The notes under the pieces are model-generated. The model did no database searches, was not told the origin of the DNA, and worked only from the letters and a program-made list of their open reading frames with translations. This document shows, piece after piece, positions 2,486-8,620 of a DNA stretch of 20,141 bases. Both the position numbers and the translations under genes were made by a program. Every line of letters begins with the position of its first letter. Position 1 is the stretch's first letter. This DNA is from a virus. The DNA is taken from positions 1-20,141 of the IMG/VR virus record IMGVR_UViG_3300042503_001864; one strand, 5' to 3'.

Positions 2486-3334
2486 TCAGTTCCCCGTTTG
2501 CTCGGCGTGTTTCCGCGCCTTGTCCAAACCGGGCAACGTGTATTTCGCTTTCTTGACATCAACAGACTTTGCAACGACATTCGTCGTTCCCGCATCTGCC
2601 GTGTTGTTCTTCACAAAGTATCCCTGCGCTTCGCCGATGGAAGGAATGATGTCATCGATTCCAAGCGGCTTCGACTTGTCCTTGTCGCCATAGGCAAGCA
2701 AATCCTTGCCCTTCTGATAGACTGTGACTTGCTTATTTGCGCTGTTCCACTTGAGGTCGTATTGCTCCTTGGCATCGCCATAGAGCAATTCGATTGTCTT
2801 CTCCAATGGAAGGACTGTCTTGCGATTGTTGGCGGATGCGGCCTTCGCGATGAAGTTGCGAATCTGGAATCCGGCTTCAACCTCCGTTGCCTTGTTCAAC
2901 GCGCCGGGCAATTCAACTTCCTTCAGCGTCCGGATTGCTTCATCGCGTTGCTGAAGTTCGCCGCGCAACCGCTGAATCTCCTTGTCCGCATCGCCGTTCG
3001 GGGCGGTCGCGCCCATCTTCTCAACCAACAAGTCAACGACCTTGTTGAAGCGGTCTTGCTTGGGCAATCCTTCCAATTCCGCTTGGGTCAACAAGCCCTT
3101 GCTCGCCTTGACCAAGTATCGCTCCTTGCTTGAAAGCACTTCGCCTTGCCAATTGCCTTTCAATTTGCTGATGAAGGCATCGTCATTCTCCAAGGCCTGT
3201 TGTATGTTCTGCGTCACCTCGCCCGCAACCTCATCAACATCAAAGTCCGCATCCTCCTTGAGAATGGTATTGATGTGTTGGTCTGACAGGCCAATCTTCT
3301 TGAGCAATTCTTGAACTTTCTTCATGGTCAGCAT
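2486..3334 (-). CDS. Putative capsid scaffolding protein
   Basis: This 282-residue, charged and largely helical protein lies immediately upstream of the major capsid gene, the usual place for a scaffold. The N-terminal 100 residues are rich in E, K and L. A predicted coiled coil lies near residues 115-145 (KEIQRLRGELQQRDEAIRTL). A middle segment follows with 'GYFVKNN', and the basic C-terminal tail (residues about 255-282) matches the capsid-binding basic helix seen in many scaffold proteins. No protease-like catalytic motif is visible. The start used is 3334; an in-frame ATG at 3325 (MKKVQELL) is nearly as good, and neither has a clear Shine-Dalgarno. Identification rests on context and composition. 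Confidence 0.7.
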   Translation of the reverse strand: MLTMKKVQELLKKIGLSDQHINTILKEDADFDVDEVAGEVTQNIQQALENDDAFISKLKGNWQGEVLSSKERYLVKASKGLLTQAELEGLPKQDRFNKVVDLLVEKMGATAPNGDADKEIQRLRGELQQRDEAIRTLKEVELPGALNKATEVEAGFQIRNFIAKAASANNRKTVLPLEKTIELLYGDAKEQYDLKWNSANKQVTVYQKGKDLLAYGDKDKSKPLGIDDIIPSIGEAQGYFVKNNTADAGTTNVVAKSVDVKKAKYTLPGLDKARKHAEQTGN

Positions 3335-4599: not shown

Positions 4600-4855
4600 C
4601 AATGTTGCGAAGGCTGTCGGCATACAGCGAAGATACCTTGCTCAATTCCGCGTTGACGCGGTTCAAGGAATCGATATGAACTTGTAGATGTTGAGCGTTG
4701 CGAACGTGCGCATCTGCCTTGTCCGACGACGGCGGTTCAATGTCTTGCGGAGCGGCGCGGAGAATGACCAACACAAGCGTCCCAACGACAACCACGATTG
4801 CCGCGATGTGTAGGATGTGAATCCAACGGATGATTCGCAACGGGTCAGTCGCCAT
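4451..4855 (-). CDS. Rz-like inner-membrane protein (putative i-spanin)
   Basis: This 134-residue protein has an N-terminal membrane anchor at residues 12-33 (hydrophobic run AAIVVVVGTLVLVIL). A periplasmic, charged, helix-forming remainder follows, with heptad-like stretches at 50-95 and 100-125. This N-in anchor plus coiled coil is the topology of Rz-type inner-membrane spanins, which join an outer-membrane partner to disrupt the envelope at lysis. The start overlaps the preceding 63-residue gene by 11 nt. The 3' third overlaps the next gene in a different frame, as in Rz/Rz1. No sequence-level spanin family is recognised, so this is an inference from topology and overlap. Confidence 0.65.
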   Translation of the reverse strand: MATDPLRIIRWIHILHIAAIVVVVGTLVLVILRAAPQDIEPPSSDKADAHVRNAQHLQVHIDSLNRVNAELSKVSSLYADSLRNIDERYTKHRNRVRNASADDLRAILDSLSATYLINRERYHLLLQGGIEIGD

Positions 4856-5036
4856 CTATCAATTCAAATGGAATTGGTTTGGCAAGGCTTGCAACAAACC
4901 ACTCATGGCCCAATCCCTTCGGAGGATTTGAATCTTCCTTGATTTCCCTGTAAATGCTCCGCAGAGTTGTATAGTCATCTTTCAAAGATGCTTCCAACGT
5001 TTGCTGCGATAGTTCTTGTATCCGTTCAATTGTCAT
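4845..5036 (-). CDS. Small acidic hypothetical protein next to the MuF-peptidase gene
   Basis: This 63-residue protein is helical at the N-terminus (MTIERIQELSQQTLEASLKD) and net acidic, with no membrane segment. Its ATG follows the stop of the MuF-metallopeptidase gene by 1 nt (TGA-C-ATG), so translation is almost certainly coupled. It overlaps the spanin-like gene by 11 nt. The family is unknown. It could be the first gene of the lysis cassette or, because polymorphic toxins are usually followed by a small immunity gene, a candidate inhibitor of the peptidase domain. The sequence does not separate these options. Confidence 0.7.
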   Translation of the reverse strand: MTIERIQELSQQTLEASLKDDYTTLRSIYREIKEDSNPPKGLGHEWFVASLAKPIPFELIDGD

Positions 5037-5037
5037 G

Positions 5038-6705
5038 TCAGTAGGTGGTGACGGTGGCTTTGTCTATGCCGTACTCCTTCAACGTTTCCTCAAAGGCTTC
5101 GTATACTCGTGGGTGCTTGTTCTTCAGCCAAGCATTCGCGTGAACGTAGGCGGCGAAAGTTTCGCACCAAAACTCGTCTACGTTGCTTCGCCCGTATACC
5201 GAAGGAGCGTCTTGTAGAATCAATCCATATTTCCTCATCACTCTCGCAAACTTTGGCGCTCGTTCGCCCCGCGACATTGGATCCTTTTCAAAGCCTATCA
5301 GGTGCGCGTTCTCGTGAACTATGGTCGGAGCGATGTTCTTCTCAAAGCGCGCTATGGCATCAGATATTGTTCCGGGCGTGGTCGTTGTTCCGTAACGCTC
5401 GTTCATCTCTTTGCTGTATCCGCGTTGCGCTATGAATTCTCCGGGATTGATTCGTACCGATATGAGCCGTTTGTGTCTCCAAGCCAATCCGGCCGCATTC
5501 GTGTTTTCAAGAGTGTAATTCTCCGTGTCTATTCTCTCCTTTGTTCCTTCGTTTCTGAACTTTCCTTGACCAATCTCTTCGCCCGGCCCGCACAAGCCCG
5601 TGAAGGTTATGTTCTTCTTCATAATCTCGGCAACGCCGTCTTGGTCGTTGACAAGGGCGGCATACGAATCGTTGATTGCGTCCGTCTGATTTGACCCAAG
5701 ATATCCCTTGTCAAATTGAACTTTGGGTTTCGCGGGCGCGGGCGCGGGCTTTGGCGCGGGCGGTGGCGCGGGCGGTGGCGCGGGCGGCGGAGGTGGCGGA
5801 GGCGGAGGTGGAGGTGGAGCGGGCGGCTTTGTAACAGAGCCATCCGCCGTCCGGCGCGTTGGAATTGCCTTGTGACGGCAGTTGTATCCGCCGCGATTCA
5901 CAGGCCACAAGTCAACTGTCGTTCCGGGTATCCAACCGCTTCCGTTGTTGACGGCCCATCTGATTTCATCGGGCAATTCCTCTCCTGTAATGATTCCTTT
6001 CTCAACCCATCGCTTGCATTGCGGTCGCGTTCCTCCGGTACGCTTGCCTTGTTTGTTGGGCGCGCCGGGCAAGATGTTCCCAACGTATCGCCAATTGGTC
6101 AACCCGTATTGTTGCGCGACTTGCTTGTGAACTTGGCCTTCGTACTGATGGAACGAATCGCGCGCAACGCCTCCAACGTACTTGGTCAACACGCCGTTGC
6201 CGTCAACAGGCGAAATCAGATTGCGCAACGCTCGCTCCGTTTCAAGTATGCCCGCGCCAAAGTTGATTTGATTGTACAGGGTCTTGCGAACGGGGTCAGC
6301 GAATCGCGCGTTGTAACCGCTGGACACGATGTTGTCGACTGTCATTTGAAGCATCCTCTGCTTCGTGTCGTTCATCATCTTGTCGGCTACGCGGATTCCG
6401 CTTTCATCGCCGTGCATCGCCTTGACGTTCGCCGATATCTTGTCGAACTCCGGCAACAAGTCGCGCACCGCTGTCTTGATTTGCTTCTTGCCCGCCGTTT
6501 GCTCAAGAACGCTGTTGAGTTCATTGAGGATGCGCGTGGTCGTTTCATCAACCACAATCTTCCCGTTCTTCGTCGGTAACCTCCGTAGGTAATCGTTCAA
6601 GTCGGTAATCAATCCCTTCTCAAGGGTCTTGAACCGATTCTGAAGGTCGCGCACGCCCTTCTCCGCAATGCGTTCATTGAGTATGACGAGGTCTAACAGC
6701 GACAT
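5038..6705 (-). CDS. MuF-type minor head protein fused to a C-terminal HExxH metallopeptidase-like domain
   Basis: This 555-residue protein follows the portal by 4 nt, the usual place for a MuF (SPP1 gp7-like) head morphogenesis protein. Residues 1-130 are helical. The MuF domain spans roughly 140-285 and ends with the characteristic GGYNCRH signature (272-278) after PQC and W residues. Residues 293-328 are a proline/alanine linker with 12 consecutive prolines. The C-terminal domain (about 330-555) carries IVHENAHLIGF, an HExxH zinc motif at 464-468, and further on NVDEFWCETFAAYV, where E511 or E515 could be the third zinc ligand of a gluzincin. MuF proteins with toxin-like C-terminal domains are known as MuF polymorphic toxins, injected or released with phage particles. 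Whether this one is a toxin, a maturation protease or acts on the host envelope is not shown. Zinc coordination and activity are inferred. Confidence 0.85.
   Translation of the reverse strand: MSLLDLVILNERIAEKGVRDLQNRFKTLEKGLITDLNDYLRRLPTKNGKIVVDETTTRILNELNSVLEQTAGKKQIKTAVRDLLPEFDKISANVKAMHGDESGIRVADKMMNDTKQRMLQMTVDNIVSSGYNARFADPVRKTLYNQINFGAGILETERALRNLISPVDGNGVLTKYVGGVARDSFHQYEGQVHKQVAQQYGLTNWRYVGNILPGAPNKQGKRTGGTRPQCKRWVEKGIITGEELPDEIRWAVNNGSGWIPGTTVDLWPVNRGGYNCRHKAIPTRRTADGSVTKPPAPPPPPPPPPPPPAPPPAPPPAPKPAPAPAKPKVQFDKGYLGSNQTDAINDSYAALVNDQDGVAEIMKKNITFTGLCGPGEEIGQGKFRNEGTKERIDTENYTLENTNAAGLAWRHKRLISVRINPGEFIAQRGYSKEMNERYGTTTTPGTISDAIARFEKNIAPTIVHENAHLIGFEKDPMSRGERAPKFARVMRKYGLILQDAPSVYGRSNVDEFWCETFAAYVHANAWLKNKHPRVYEAFEETLKEYGIDKATVTTY
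5731..5826. repeat. Low-complexity tract coding for the polyproline linker
   Basis: GC-rich low-complexity DNA containing three perfect copies of the 12-bp unit tggcgcgggcgg (5752-5763, 5764-5775, 5776-5787), followed by GGA/GGT/GGC-type triplets that encode 12 prolines in a row on the minus strand. It separates the two domains of the MuF fusion and could expand or contract by slippage. Confidence 0.85.
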
Positions 6706-6709
6706 GCGT

Positions 6710-8620
6710 TCATCCCATTACGCGTTGGATGAACTCTTCGCGGTTGACAACGATTCCTTCGGCCTCAAAGTCTGCAAGGCTTGCTTCTGCTGACGACATT
6801 CGATTCTCCGCGTCCGCGATTCGGCGAAGCATTGACACGATGCCATTAATCATTTCGGTGTTGTCCTCCTCTTCGCCCTCCTCTTCGCCCGGCGATTCAA
6901 TGTCTCCCGGCGATTCCAACCGCGCGGCGGGCAACAAGGCTTCGACCTTGTCATCAATCAAATCGAAGATGTTGTCTTGGTACAATACATCTGCGCCGTA
7001 TTCGCGGGTCAATCGCTTCAGCGCGGCGGGCGCAAGCGTATGACGGCGTACCAACACATCGTCAATCAATCCCCCGGCGCGTTGGGCTACAATGTCCTCA
7101 TCGCTCATGCCGAACAGGACATCGTATTCGGCAAGCACTTCAACGCTCTTCACCAAGGTTGCTTGGCCGGGGAATCGCTTGCGAACAAACTCCATCCATA
7201 CCAAACCATCCATAGCAAACGGCGCGCCCGCTTGCTTCAGCGATTGCATTTCTGAGGTCAGGTCTTCCTCGCTTCTGACGATGAATGTCGGCGGCAGACT
7301 GATTTGGATATCCGTATCGTCAACGCCGAAGAACATCAGTTCCGCGATGTCTTCAATGGTGTGCTTCATCAACACCATATACAAGTGATACCCGATGGTG
7401 TCCAACTTGGCAACCTTGTGTTCGCGGTCAATGTTCTTCGCAACGCCGCTCTGCGCTTCGTCAATGAAGAGTTGGTTCAACTCCTTCTCAAGGTCGGCCT
7501 TGTAATCGCGCCAAGTCTTGTTCCCGAACTCAAGTATGCTTGGGTCGGGATTGATGAACTTGACCATGTCGCGGTCGCTTGCTCCGGTTTGGCCTTCAAG
7601 CATACTCGCCTTCTTGCGAATCAACACGCCATACGGGCCAAATGGCGCAACCTTGCCGCGTCCTTTGCACGATGGGCATGACTTGCGAAGAACCTCTTCG
7701 TTCAAGCCTTTCTCTGTGATGTATCCGTTGTGGCATCCCTTGTAGGCGCAGTCGATTCCTTCGACCTCGCGTAACGGGAATCCGGCTGTAACCAATACGC
7801 CTTGGTGGTCGCTCCATTGACGCGCACATTCATTGGCGTAGGGCATCGCATTCGCAACGAAGGACTGATACCAAACTTCATCCTTGTTGGTACGCGTGTT
7901 TGTCATCACGACCTCTTCGCCGCCAAGAACGTCAATCGGCAATCGGTTCAAGCGATGCGGGTAATGGACAAGCAATTCAAATGAGGCATCTTCCTTCCGT
8001 CCGTATTGCCGCAACTTATAATAGTTGACGCTGTCCACGATGTTGTAGACAATGCCTTCTTCCCGAACCTCGCTTCCATCGCGGGTCTGAACGATGATTT
8101 CGCTTCGCTCTTCCGCTTCCCACGACAGCACATCCTTGGTGAAATGCTTGATGTTCTTGCTCAACACCATCACCAACTCCGGCTCCACTTTCGCATTGGG
8201 CGCATCCGGAACTACGTTCACCCAACGAACCAATATGCCGTTGGGGTCTACAATCATTCTCTTGCACAACTTGCGGCTCCAATAGGAGCGCAAGTCCATT
8301 CCATCAAAGTTGTTGCCTTCAAGATAGTCTTGAAGGTCATCGTTGTTGACGTTCACGCTGACTTGCGTACCGCTGAACACCCGGCTCAAGTCGCTGTTGA
8401 ACCGCGCAAACGGCCCCTTGGTAACGGGTTCGTAGTTCTGCCTTCGATACAACGCGATGTCTTCGTCCTCGTAGGGTCTGCGGGTTTCAATCAGTTTGAT
8501 TGGAACTGTCCCGTTCACATGAACGCTGACCGCTTCGTACTCCCCAACCCACCGCTCTTGCAGAGGGGGGCTGGGGAGGTTGAAGAAGTCTTGGACGTAT
8601 CGGTTGATGTCGAACGCCAT
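6710..8620 (-). CDS. Phage portal protein with a four-cysteine insert
   Basis: This 636-residue protein is the probable dodecameric ring through which DNA is packaged and ejected. Support comes from its length, its place directly before a MuF gene, and a long helical C-terminal half. That half includes an LxKEL-type helix near residues 375-400 and an acidic Glu-rich tail (about 575-595) typical of portals. An insertion near 290-320 has C291-x4-C296 and C315-x2-C318 followed by KGRGK, a DnaJ-like CxxCxGxG pattern that may bind zinc. It begins 9 nt after the 189-residue gene and shares its predicted promoter. I place it in the portal superfamily by context and size, with no close family match claimed. 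Confidence 0.8.
   Translation of the reverse strand: MAFDINRYVQDFFNLPSPPLQERWVGEYEAVSVHVNGTVPIKLIETRRPYEDEDIALYRRQNYEPVTKGPFARFNSDLSRVFSGTQVSVNVNNDDLQDYLEGNNFDGMDLRSYWSRKLCKRMIVDPNGILVRWVNVVPDAPNAKVEPELVMVLSKNIKHFTKDVLSWEAEERSEIIVQTRDGSEVREEGIVYNIVDSVNYYKLRQYGRKEDASFELLVHYPHRLNRLPIDVLGGEEVVMTNTRTNKDEVWYQSFVANAMPYANECARQWSDHQGVLVTAGFPLREVEGIDCAYKGCHNGYITEKGLNEEVLRKSCPSCKGRGKVAPFGPYGVLIRKKASMLEGQTGASDRDMVKFINPDPSILEFGNKTWRDYKADLEKELNQLFIDEAQSGVAKNIDREHKVAKLDTIGYHLYMVLMKHTIEDIAELMFFGVDDTDIQISLPPTFIVRSEEDLTSEMQSLKQAGAPFAMDGLVWMEFVRKRFPGQATLVKSVEVLAEYDVLFGMSDEDIVAQRAGGLIDDVLVRRHTLAPAALKRLTREYGADVLYQDNIFDLIDDKVEALLPAARLESPGDIESPGEEEGEEEDNTEMINGIVSMLRRIADAENRMSSAEASLADFEAEGIVVNREEFIQRVMG

What the first reader, a model, noticed from the sequence alone, without database searches (positions are those of the whole stretch)
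5038..6705. Minor head protein fused to an HExxH metallopeptidase-like domain through a 12-proline linker
The sequence shows a MuF domain ending in GGYNCRH, a Pro/Ala linker and a C-terminal domain with HENAH (464-468) and a downstream ExxxE (511-515). MuF proteins with variable toxic C-terminal domains are an established class (MuF polymorphic toxins). That this domain is a zinc peptidase delivered with the virion is my inference. Alternatives are a capsid-maturation protease or an enzyme that helps breach the host envelope.
Basis: partly seen in the sequence, partly recalled or inferred. Interest (0 to 1): 0.72.

Follow-up and report, generated by a model that had tools for sequence, protein, structure and literature searches.

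The report
Swappable protease–inhibitor cassette on phage head
A virus that infects bacteria carries, fused to a protein of its head, a zinc-protease domain built like anthrax lethal factor, together with a tiny partner gene; among near-identical viruses this pair is exchanged as one cassette, the hallmark of a toxin and its antidote, and it turns up in viruses that show no sign of the dormant lifestyle that such head toxins were thought to require.

Summary
The gene follows the portal gene and encodes a MuF head protein, a Pro/Ala linker and a 226-residue C-terminal domain (CTD). The CTD is a lethal-factor-like (ATLF) zincin: confident model (pLDDT 82.6) and Foldseek matches to anthrax lethal factor and Pro-Pro endopeptidases. 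H464, E465, H468, E511 and E515 are kept in 19/19 relatives, Y504 in 18/19; the Y-x6-E spacing is that of PPEP-3, so E511 is the likely third zinc ligand. In phages with 79-97% identical flanks, CTD plus small ORF is replaced as one block by another zincin pair, a zeta toxin, or nothing. This is toxin-immunity cassette swapping, so a MuF polymorphic toxin is well supported; delivery and toxicity are inferred. Metallopeptidase MuF toxins were known (about 20%, Jamet 2017), but reported only in temperate phages; no recombinase, ParA or repressor profile matched here. The polyproline linker is not a family feature.

The parts
5038..6705 (-). MuF-zincin fusion gene (555 aa), immediately downstream of the portal gene
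   Evidence: relatives match Phage_min_cap2
5857..6705 (-). MuF head-protein part, residues 1-283, ending just after GGYNCRH
   Evidence: 70% identical to the relative L002, 33% to the CTD-less L004
5719..5856 (-). Pro/Ala-rich linker, residues 284-329 (12-Pro run at 5782-5817)
   Evidence: not conserved in most relatives
5041..5718 (-). C-terminal lethal-factor-like zincin domain (type A), residues 330-555
   Evidence: AlphaFold2 pLDDT 82.6, pTM 0.85; Foldseek anthrax lethal factor E 6e-5, PPEP-1 5e-4; profile vs PDB lethal factor E 2e-4
5302..5316 (-). HENAH, residues 464-468: two zinc-ligand histidines and the general-base glutamate E465
   Evidence: H, E, H invariant in 19/19 type-A domains
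5194..5196 (-). Y504, predicted oxyanion tyrosine
   Evidence: conserved 18/19; Y-x6-E spacing as Tyr190/Glu197 of PPEP-3
5173..5175 (-). E511, predicted third zinc ligand
   Evidence: 19/19; equivalent to Glu197 of PPEP-3
5161..5163 (-). E515, second-shell glutamate (inferred)
   Evidence: 19/19
4845..5036 (-). 63-aa partner ORF, putative immunity/inhibitor protein; start codon 1 nt after the stop of the MuF gene
   Evidence: same family behind type-A domains on MuF2 carriers and (grouped by BLAST) on portal-MuF fusions; 9 of 9 reciprocal hits sit behind a type-A domain; three-helix model pLDDT 84.6
6710..8620 (-). portal protein (context)
   Evidence: PHROG 7376 portal, E 3e-14

Best explanation
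The gene encodes a MuF polymorphic toxin. The MuF part is a minor head protein at the portal. The C-terminal part is a zinc metallopeptidase of the lethal-factor (ATLF, M34-like) fold that uses H464/H468/E511 to hold zinc, E465 as general base and Y504 to stabilise the transition state. It is made late in infection, packaged in a few copies at the portal, and released into the next cell with the DNA, where it cleaves a bacterial target not yet known. The 63-aa protein encoded right behind it, probably translationally coupled, is its cognate inhibitor (immunity protein), which keeps the protease off in the producing cell and in cells already infected by the same phage. CTD and inhibitor form one cassette that recombines between phages at the end of the conserved MuF sequence and at the end of the small ORF. 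Shown here: fold, catalytic residue pattern, obligate partnership, block exchange. Inferred: zinc binding, peptidase activity, packaging, injection, inhibition, toxicity.
For: Fold and catalytic pattern. MuF context. Same CTD on MuF2 carriers, on Mu portal-Phage_Mu_F fusions (Portal_Mu 5e-74, Phage_Mu_F 2e-15) and on another Phage_Mu_F-like carrier. Small-ORF family follows CTD type: A, B and D each have their own, MuF-only L004, L013 and L015 have none. Four tree cherries (support 100/99 or better) in which near-identical MuF cores carry different CTDs: L099(A)/L016(B), L010(A)/L012(B), L018(A)/L021(B), L103(A)/L014(zeta)/L013(none). DNA comparison: L103 vs L013 is 90% identical to 4420, then 96% from 5507, and the small ORF ends at 5506; L010 vs L012 matches to 6798 and resumes at 7979, the end of the small ORF. 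The zeta-toxin replacement (Pfam 2e-14) is a known toxin class. [quoted passage not shown] MuF toxins Bxa and Apk2 are neutralised by neighbouring immunity proteins (PMC11699363).
Against: No activity, packaging or toxicity data. The window protein alone is below every Pfam cut-off (ATLF E 0.006-0.017). A dedicated immunity gene is expected in lysogens, yet these phages show no lysogeny genes, so the small protein could be a chaperone, packaging adaptor or assembly-phase inhibitor. L108/L109 small ORFs do not group with the main family by BLAST. Foldseek alignments to lethal factor have high rmsd (6-7 A) and TM-score near 0.5, so only the core fold is shared. Model coordinates could not be inspected, so clustering of the zinc residues was not measured directly.
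Confidence: 0.68

Rival explanations
1. Non-lethal early effector: the injected peptidase destroys a host defence or regulatory protein at the start of infection, and the small ORF is an assembly-phase inhibitor or packaging chaperone rather than an immunity gene against rivals.
For: Apparently non-temperate phages gain little from lysogen immunity. Jamet et al. suggest peptidase MuFs may be only mildly toxic and act on host decisions or defences (PMC5576092). Polyvalent-protein zincins are viewed as early effectors (PMC5512222).
Against: Replacement of the cassette by a zeta toxin, and the exact joint exchange with the small ORF, look like toxin-immunity diversification.
Confidence: 0.2
2. 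Structural or self-processing protease: the domain cleaves head or scaffold proteins during capsid maturation, or cuts its own MuF carrier before or after packaging.
For: It sits in the head gene block; zincins of phage polyvalent proteins have been proposed to process their own polypeptides (PMC5512222). No separate prohead protease was seen in the window's head block.
Against: Relatives with the same portal, scaffold and capsid genes but no CTD (L004, L013, L015). The domain is exchanged for a zeta-type toxin in an otherwise 91-97% identical phage (L014). The Mu-like Vibrio phage with a similar CTD has its own protease gene.
Confidence: 0.08
3. Envelope-breaching enzyme: the domain cleaves cell-wall peptides or envelope proteins to help DNA entry.
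For: Some virion-borne enzymes do this (established knowledge).
Against: The fold is that of protein endopeptidases, not of known wall hydrolases; MuF proteins sit in the head at the portal, not at the tail tip; a wall enzyme needs no cognate inhibitor and would not be exchanged for a zeta toxin.
Confidence: 0.04

Closest known systems
MuF polymorphic toxins (Jamet et al. 2017, PMC5576092; Bxa, PMC11699363; Apk2)
   Same: MuF N-terminus encoded next to the portal, variable C-terminal enzyme, small ORF directly downstream; metallopeptidase domains reported in 20% of putative MuF toxins.
   Different: Those were reported exclusively in temperate phages, mostly of Firmicutes; here no recombinase, ParA or repressor profile matched in records that include three apparently end-to-end genomes. 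The CTD and small-ORF pair is a family without Pfam or PHROG model, and swapping of the whole cassette is seen directly between near-identical phages.
Lethal-factor-like metallopeptidases (Pfam ATLF; lethal factor, PPEP-1/PPEP-3)
   Same: HExxH helix, Y-x6-E arrangement, core fold.
   Different: About 14-18% identity, different N-terminal half, phage head carrier; the target is presumably bacterial.
Tox-ALF-MPTase of polymorphic toxins (Zhang et al. 2012, PMC3482391)
   Same: Lethal-factor-like zincin used as a toxin tip.
   Different: Listed there for PVC and T2SS toxins, not for MuF; partner there Imm-SuFu, here an unrelated 63-aa helical protein.
MPTase domains of polyvalent proteins (Iyer et al. 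2017, PMC5512222)
   Same: Zincins packaged with phage particles.
   Different: Type B extensions (L012) resemble MPTase-PolyVal weakly; the window's type A does not match that model.

Membership tests
MuF polymorphic toxin | MuF domain gene immediately downstream of the portal gene | tested here: met
   portal 8620-6710, MuF 6705-5038; Phage_min_cap2 matched by 14 of 19 aligned relatives though not by the window protein itself
MuF polymorphic toxin | variable C-terminal extension on a conserved MuF core | tested here: met
   tree cherries and DNA breakpoints
MuF polymorphic toxin | C-terminal domain belongs to a known toxin class | tested here: met
   lethal-factor-like zincin; alternate cassette is a zeta toxin
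MuF polymorphic toxin | small immunity ORF directly downstream | tested here: met
   (position and co-exchange; inhibition not tested)
MuF polymorphic toxin | carried by a temperate phage | tested here: inconclusive
   window is a 20-kb fragment; no integrase, resolvase, ParA or rve match in 19 related records and no HTH_3 in three
MuF polymorphic toxin | toxic to a bacterial cell and neutralised by the partner | not testable with these tools
   needs expression experiments
Lethal-factor-like metallopeptidase (ATLF/M34) | HExxH with a downstream Glu zinc ligand and catalytic Tyr in Y-x6-E | tested here: met
   19/19 H, E, H, E; 18/19 Y; PPEP-3 comparison
Lethal-factor-like metallopeptidase (ATLF/M34) | passes the Pfam ATLF score cut-off | tested here: not met
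   window E 0.006, 16.7 bits vs 27.4; best relative L011 3e-6, 27.3 bits
Lethal-factor-like metallopeptidase (ATLF/M34) | same core fold | tested here: met
   Foldseek prob 1.00, E 6e-5
Pro-Pro endopeptidase (PPEP) | cleaves Pro-Pro bonds, with S-loop aromatic and edge-strand residues | not testable with these tools
   fold match only; most relatives have no Pro-Pro linker
Prohead maturation protease | present in all phages sharing the capsid and scaffold genes | tested here: not met
   L004, L013, L015 lack the domain

The most novel reading that the evidence does not exclude
Obligately lytic phages carry exchangeable toxin-antidote cassettes on the portal-bound head protein and use them against rival phages: the injected protease poisons cells already taken by a phage lacking the matching 63-aa antidote, while kin infections are protected. 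MuF toxins would then be weapons of phage-phage conflict and not only of lysogens. A further unexcluded detail, specific to the window and its nearest relative, is that the Pro-Pro-endopeptidase-like domain could cut its own polyproline tether.
Probability: 0.25. Interest if true: 0.82.

Novelty: new variant of a known kind. Interest (0 to 1): 0.62.

Why it matters
MuF toxins were described as exclusively temperate. Finding complete toxin-plus-antidote cassettes, with clean exchange between near-identical phages and no lysogeny genes in sight, asks what an antidote is for in a lytic phage and makes the question testable with two small genes. The sister phages L103 (zincin), L014 (zeta toxin) and L013 (empty) are a natural comparison set. 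The partner family is unnamed in Pfam and PHROGs and offers a compact candidate inhibitor of a lethal-factor-like protease.

Tried and rejected
Whole-protein and CTD scans of about 85,000 prokaryote genomes found no relative; CTD in plasmids: none; portal in named phages: none. The Bacteroides phage Versailles hit (H14) is a separate 201-aa gene, not a MuF fusion, and was dropped. NCBIfam and PADLOC gave nothing useful. A PHROG scan of the window MuF gave no significant family. The small-ORF family as a whole (A4) was too divergent for a pattern scan; a closer subset (A6) worked. Polyproline self-cleavage was considered and kept only as an unexcluded detail, because most type-A linkers have no PP. 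Capsid-maturation protease rejected (see rivals). A residue-by-residue display of the lethal-factor alignment was not needed and not made.

Full report
OBSERVATION. The reported gene lies on the minus strand, 6705..5038, 555 aa, with GGYNCRH at 272-278, twelve prolines at 297-308, HENAH at 464-468 and E511/E515. The window is a whole 20,141-bp IMG/VR record and most likely a fragment of a phage genome (no end repeat). The gene order on the minus strand is tape measure, tail genes, portal (PHROG 7376, E 3e-14), MuF protein, a 63-aa ORF, two small transmembrane proteins (by eye), a DUF5675 protein, scaffold-like and capsid-like genes (scaffold and capsid by position and by comparison with relatives).

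RELATIVES OF THE WHOLE PROTEIN. The closest genome found is IMGVR_UViG_3300042453_000938 (L002; 45,955 bp; portal 86% and capsid 92% identical). Its MuF part is 69.5% identical to the window's but its CTD only 37.5%, so the CTD diverges faster than the rest. A more distant relative (L004, capsid 35%) has a MuF protein that stops right after GGYNCRH. The CTD is therefore an optional extra.

THE CTD IS A LETHAL-FACTOR-LIKE ZINCIN. A six-sequence alignment (A3) gave a confident model (mean pLDDT 82.6, pTM 0.85, catalytic half mostly above 90). Foldseek against the PDB ranks anthrax lethal factor first (E 6e-5, probability 1.00), then Pro-Pro endopeptidases PPEP-1 and PPEP-3; by sequence profile the best PDB match is also lethal factor (E 2e-4). 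Alignment rmsd is large (6-9 A, TM about 0.5), so the statement is about the core fold. In 19 type-A domains H464, E465, H468, D475, E511 and E515 are invariant and Y504 is kept in 18. In PPEP-3 the zinc ligands are His153, His157 and Glu197 with Glu154 as base and Tyr190 seven residues before Glu197 (PMC12828418): the window has the same arrangement with Y504 and E511. E511 is therefore the likely third ligand and E515 a second-shell residue (inference).

THE CARRIER. A scan with CTD-only patterns found 24 loci. In the 20 that were newly read the ORF is in every case a head protein: MuF ending in GGYNCRH (16), a single ORF with Mu portal plus Phage_Mu_F plus CTD (L106, and L107 by sequence; Pfam Portal_Mu 5e-74, Phage_Mu_F 2e-15 for L106), or another MuF-like protein ending in NCSC (L108, L109; Phage_Mu_F 1e-5 for L108). 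Some of these records are near-duplicates. So the same domain has been put on three kinds of MuF carrier. None was found in about 85,000 prokaryote genomes or in 72,556 plasmid records at the sensitivity used.

THE PARTNER ORF. Directly behind type-A MuF genes, usually overlapping the stop as ATGA, lies an ORF of 61-73 aa. In the window it is 5036..4845. It has no significant Pfam or PHROG match and is modelled as three helices (pLDDT 84.6). By BLAST the type-A small ORFs form one group (17 of 19; L108/L109 form their own), four of five type-B zincins share another family, type-D a third, and the MuF-only genes L004, L013, L015, L023 and L024 have no adjacent ORF of that size (two of seven MuF-only loci have an adjacent ORF of an unrelated family). 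Searching the collection with the small ORF alone returned nine loci, and all nine have the type-A CTD directly upstream.

THE CASSETTE SWAPS AS A UNIT. A tree of MuF cores without the CTD shows type changes inside tight, well-supported cherries: L099 (A) with L016 (B), L010 (A) with L012 (B), L018 (A) with L021 (B), and L103 (A) with L014 (zeta toxin) and L013 (no CTD). At the DNA level L103 and L013 are 90% identical up to 4420, about 45 bases after the GGYNCRH codons, and 96% identical again from 5507, one base after the small ORF ends; L010 and L012 likewise rejoin at the last bases of their different small ORFs; L103 and L014 rejoin at 97%. The zeta-toxin cassette (Pfam Zeta_toxin 2e-14) has a convergent 75-aa ORF in the same interval. 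This joint exchange is what a toxin-immunity pair predicts and what a structural protease does not.

LIFESTYLE. Jamet et al. (PMC5576092) found MuF toxins only in temperate phages and none with a known toxin domain in virulent phages. In 19 related records (about 0.56 Mb) there is no tyrosine integrase, serine resolvase, ParA-type ATPase or rve transposase match, and in the three records that look complete (G001, G003, G009; matching ends) no HTH_3 repressor either; control genomes were positive for each. The non-structural genes with named PHROG matches in G001 and G003 are mainly recombination, replication, packaging and lysis genes. These phages are probably not temperate by a standard route, but plasmid-like or unknown lysogeny is not excluded, other records may be fragments, and the window itself is a fragment. 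A Mu-like Vibrio phage (vB-Vv-ZX4290) shows a related MuF-zincin with an overlapping 65-aa ORF and a separate protease gene; Mu-like phages are usually temperate.

MECHANISM. [quoted passage not shown] Fold, residue pattern, partnership and block exchange are shown; enzyme activity, packaging, delivery, inhibition and toxicity are inferred.

NOVELTY. MuF toxins with metallopeptidase tips are known, so this is a variant of a known kind. New, as far as the tools reach: the lethal-factor-like CTD with its unnamed partner family, its presence on three MuF carriers including a portal-MuF-zincin single ORF, the directly visible swapping of whole cassettes, and its presence in phages without detected lysogeny genes. 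BFVD already holds phage entries annotated 'Lethal factor' and 'Minor capsid component' with similar folds.

Noticed in passing
L014:1076-2791 and 2785-3012(-): MuF protein with a zeta-toxin C-terminal domain and a convergent 75-aa ORF as possible antidote, in a phage otherwise 91-97% identical to one with the zincin cassette.
   Followed up: partly
L106:2346-5330, L107:2352-5330: One ORF of about 995 aa joins a Mu-type portal, a MuF domain and the zincin domain (portal and MuF confirmed by Pfam in L106).
   Followed up: partly
L057:4022-7609: 1,195-aa MuF protein with an HEFGH region, an ART-like stretch (by eye) and a C-terminal match to the topoisomerase I catalytic core (Pfam E 1e-23): a polyvalent head protein.
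   Followed up: partly
window residue A408 of the MuF protein: A cysteine in an NGxC motif is present in 17 of 19 type-A domains but is Ala in the window and in L002; a zinc-blocking (cysteine-switch-like) role in the others is conceivable.
   Followed up: no
L012, L016, L020-L022, L039, L040, L043, L044, L052, L066, L071, L085: Several other HExxH extension types on MuF proteins, with second motifs such as EWFAHASENYW, YAQTNxDEFWAEAF and STEAFA, mostly below Pfam cut-offs; types B and D have their own downstream small-ORF families.
   Followed up: partly
window 4855-3740 (-): Two small transmembrane proteins (spanin-like by eye) and a DUF5675 protein lie between the MuF cassette and the scaffold gene, so a lysis-like block may be embedded in the head block.
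   Followed up: no
G001 (L110:1-135 and end of L112): Both ends of the 45,955-bp relative lie in an array of 10-bp tandem repeats (AACGGATGCT-like); the genome also has a queuine tRNA-ribosyltransferase-like gene, as does cyanophage MED4-184.
   Followed up: no
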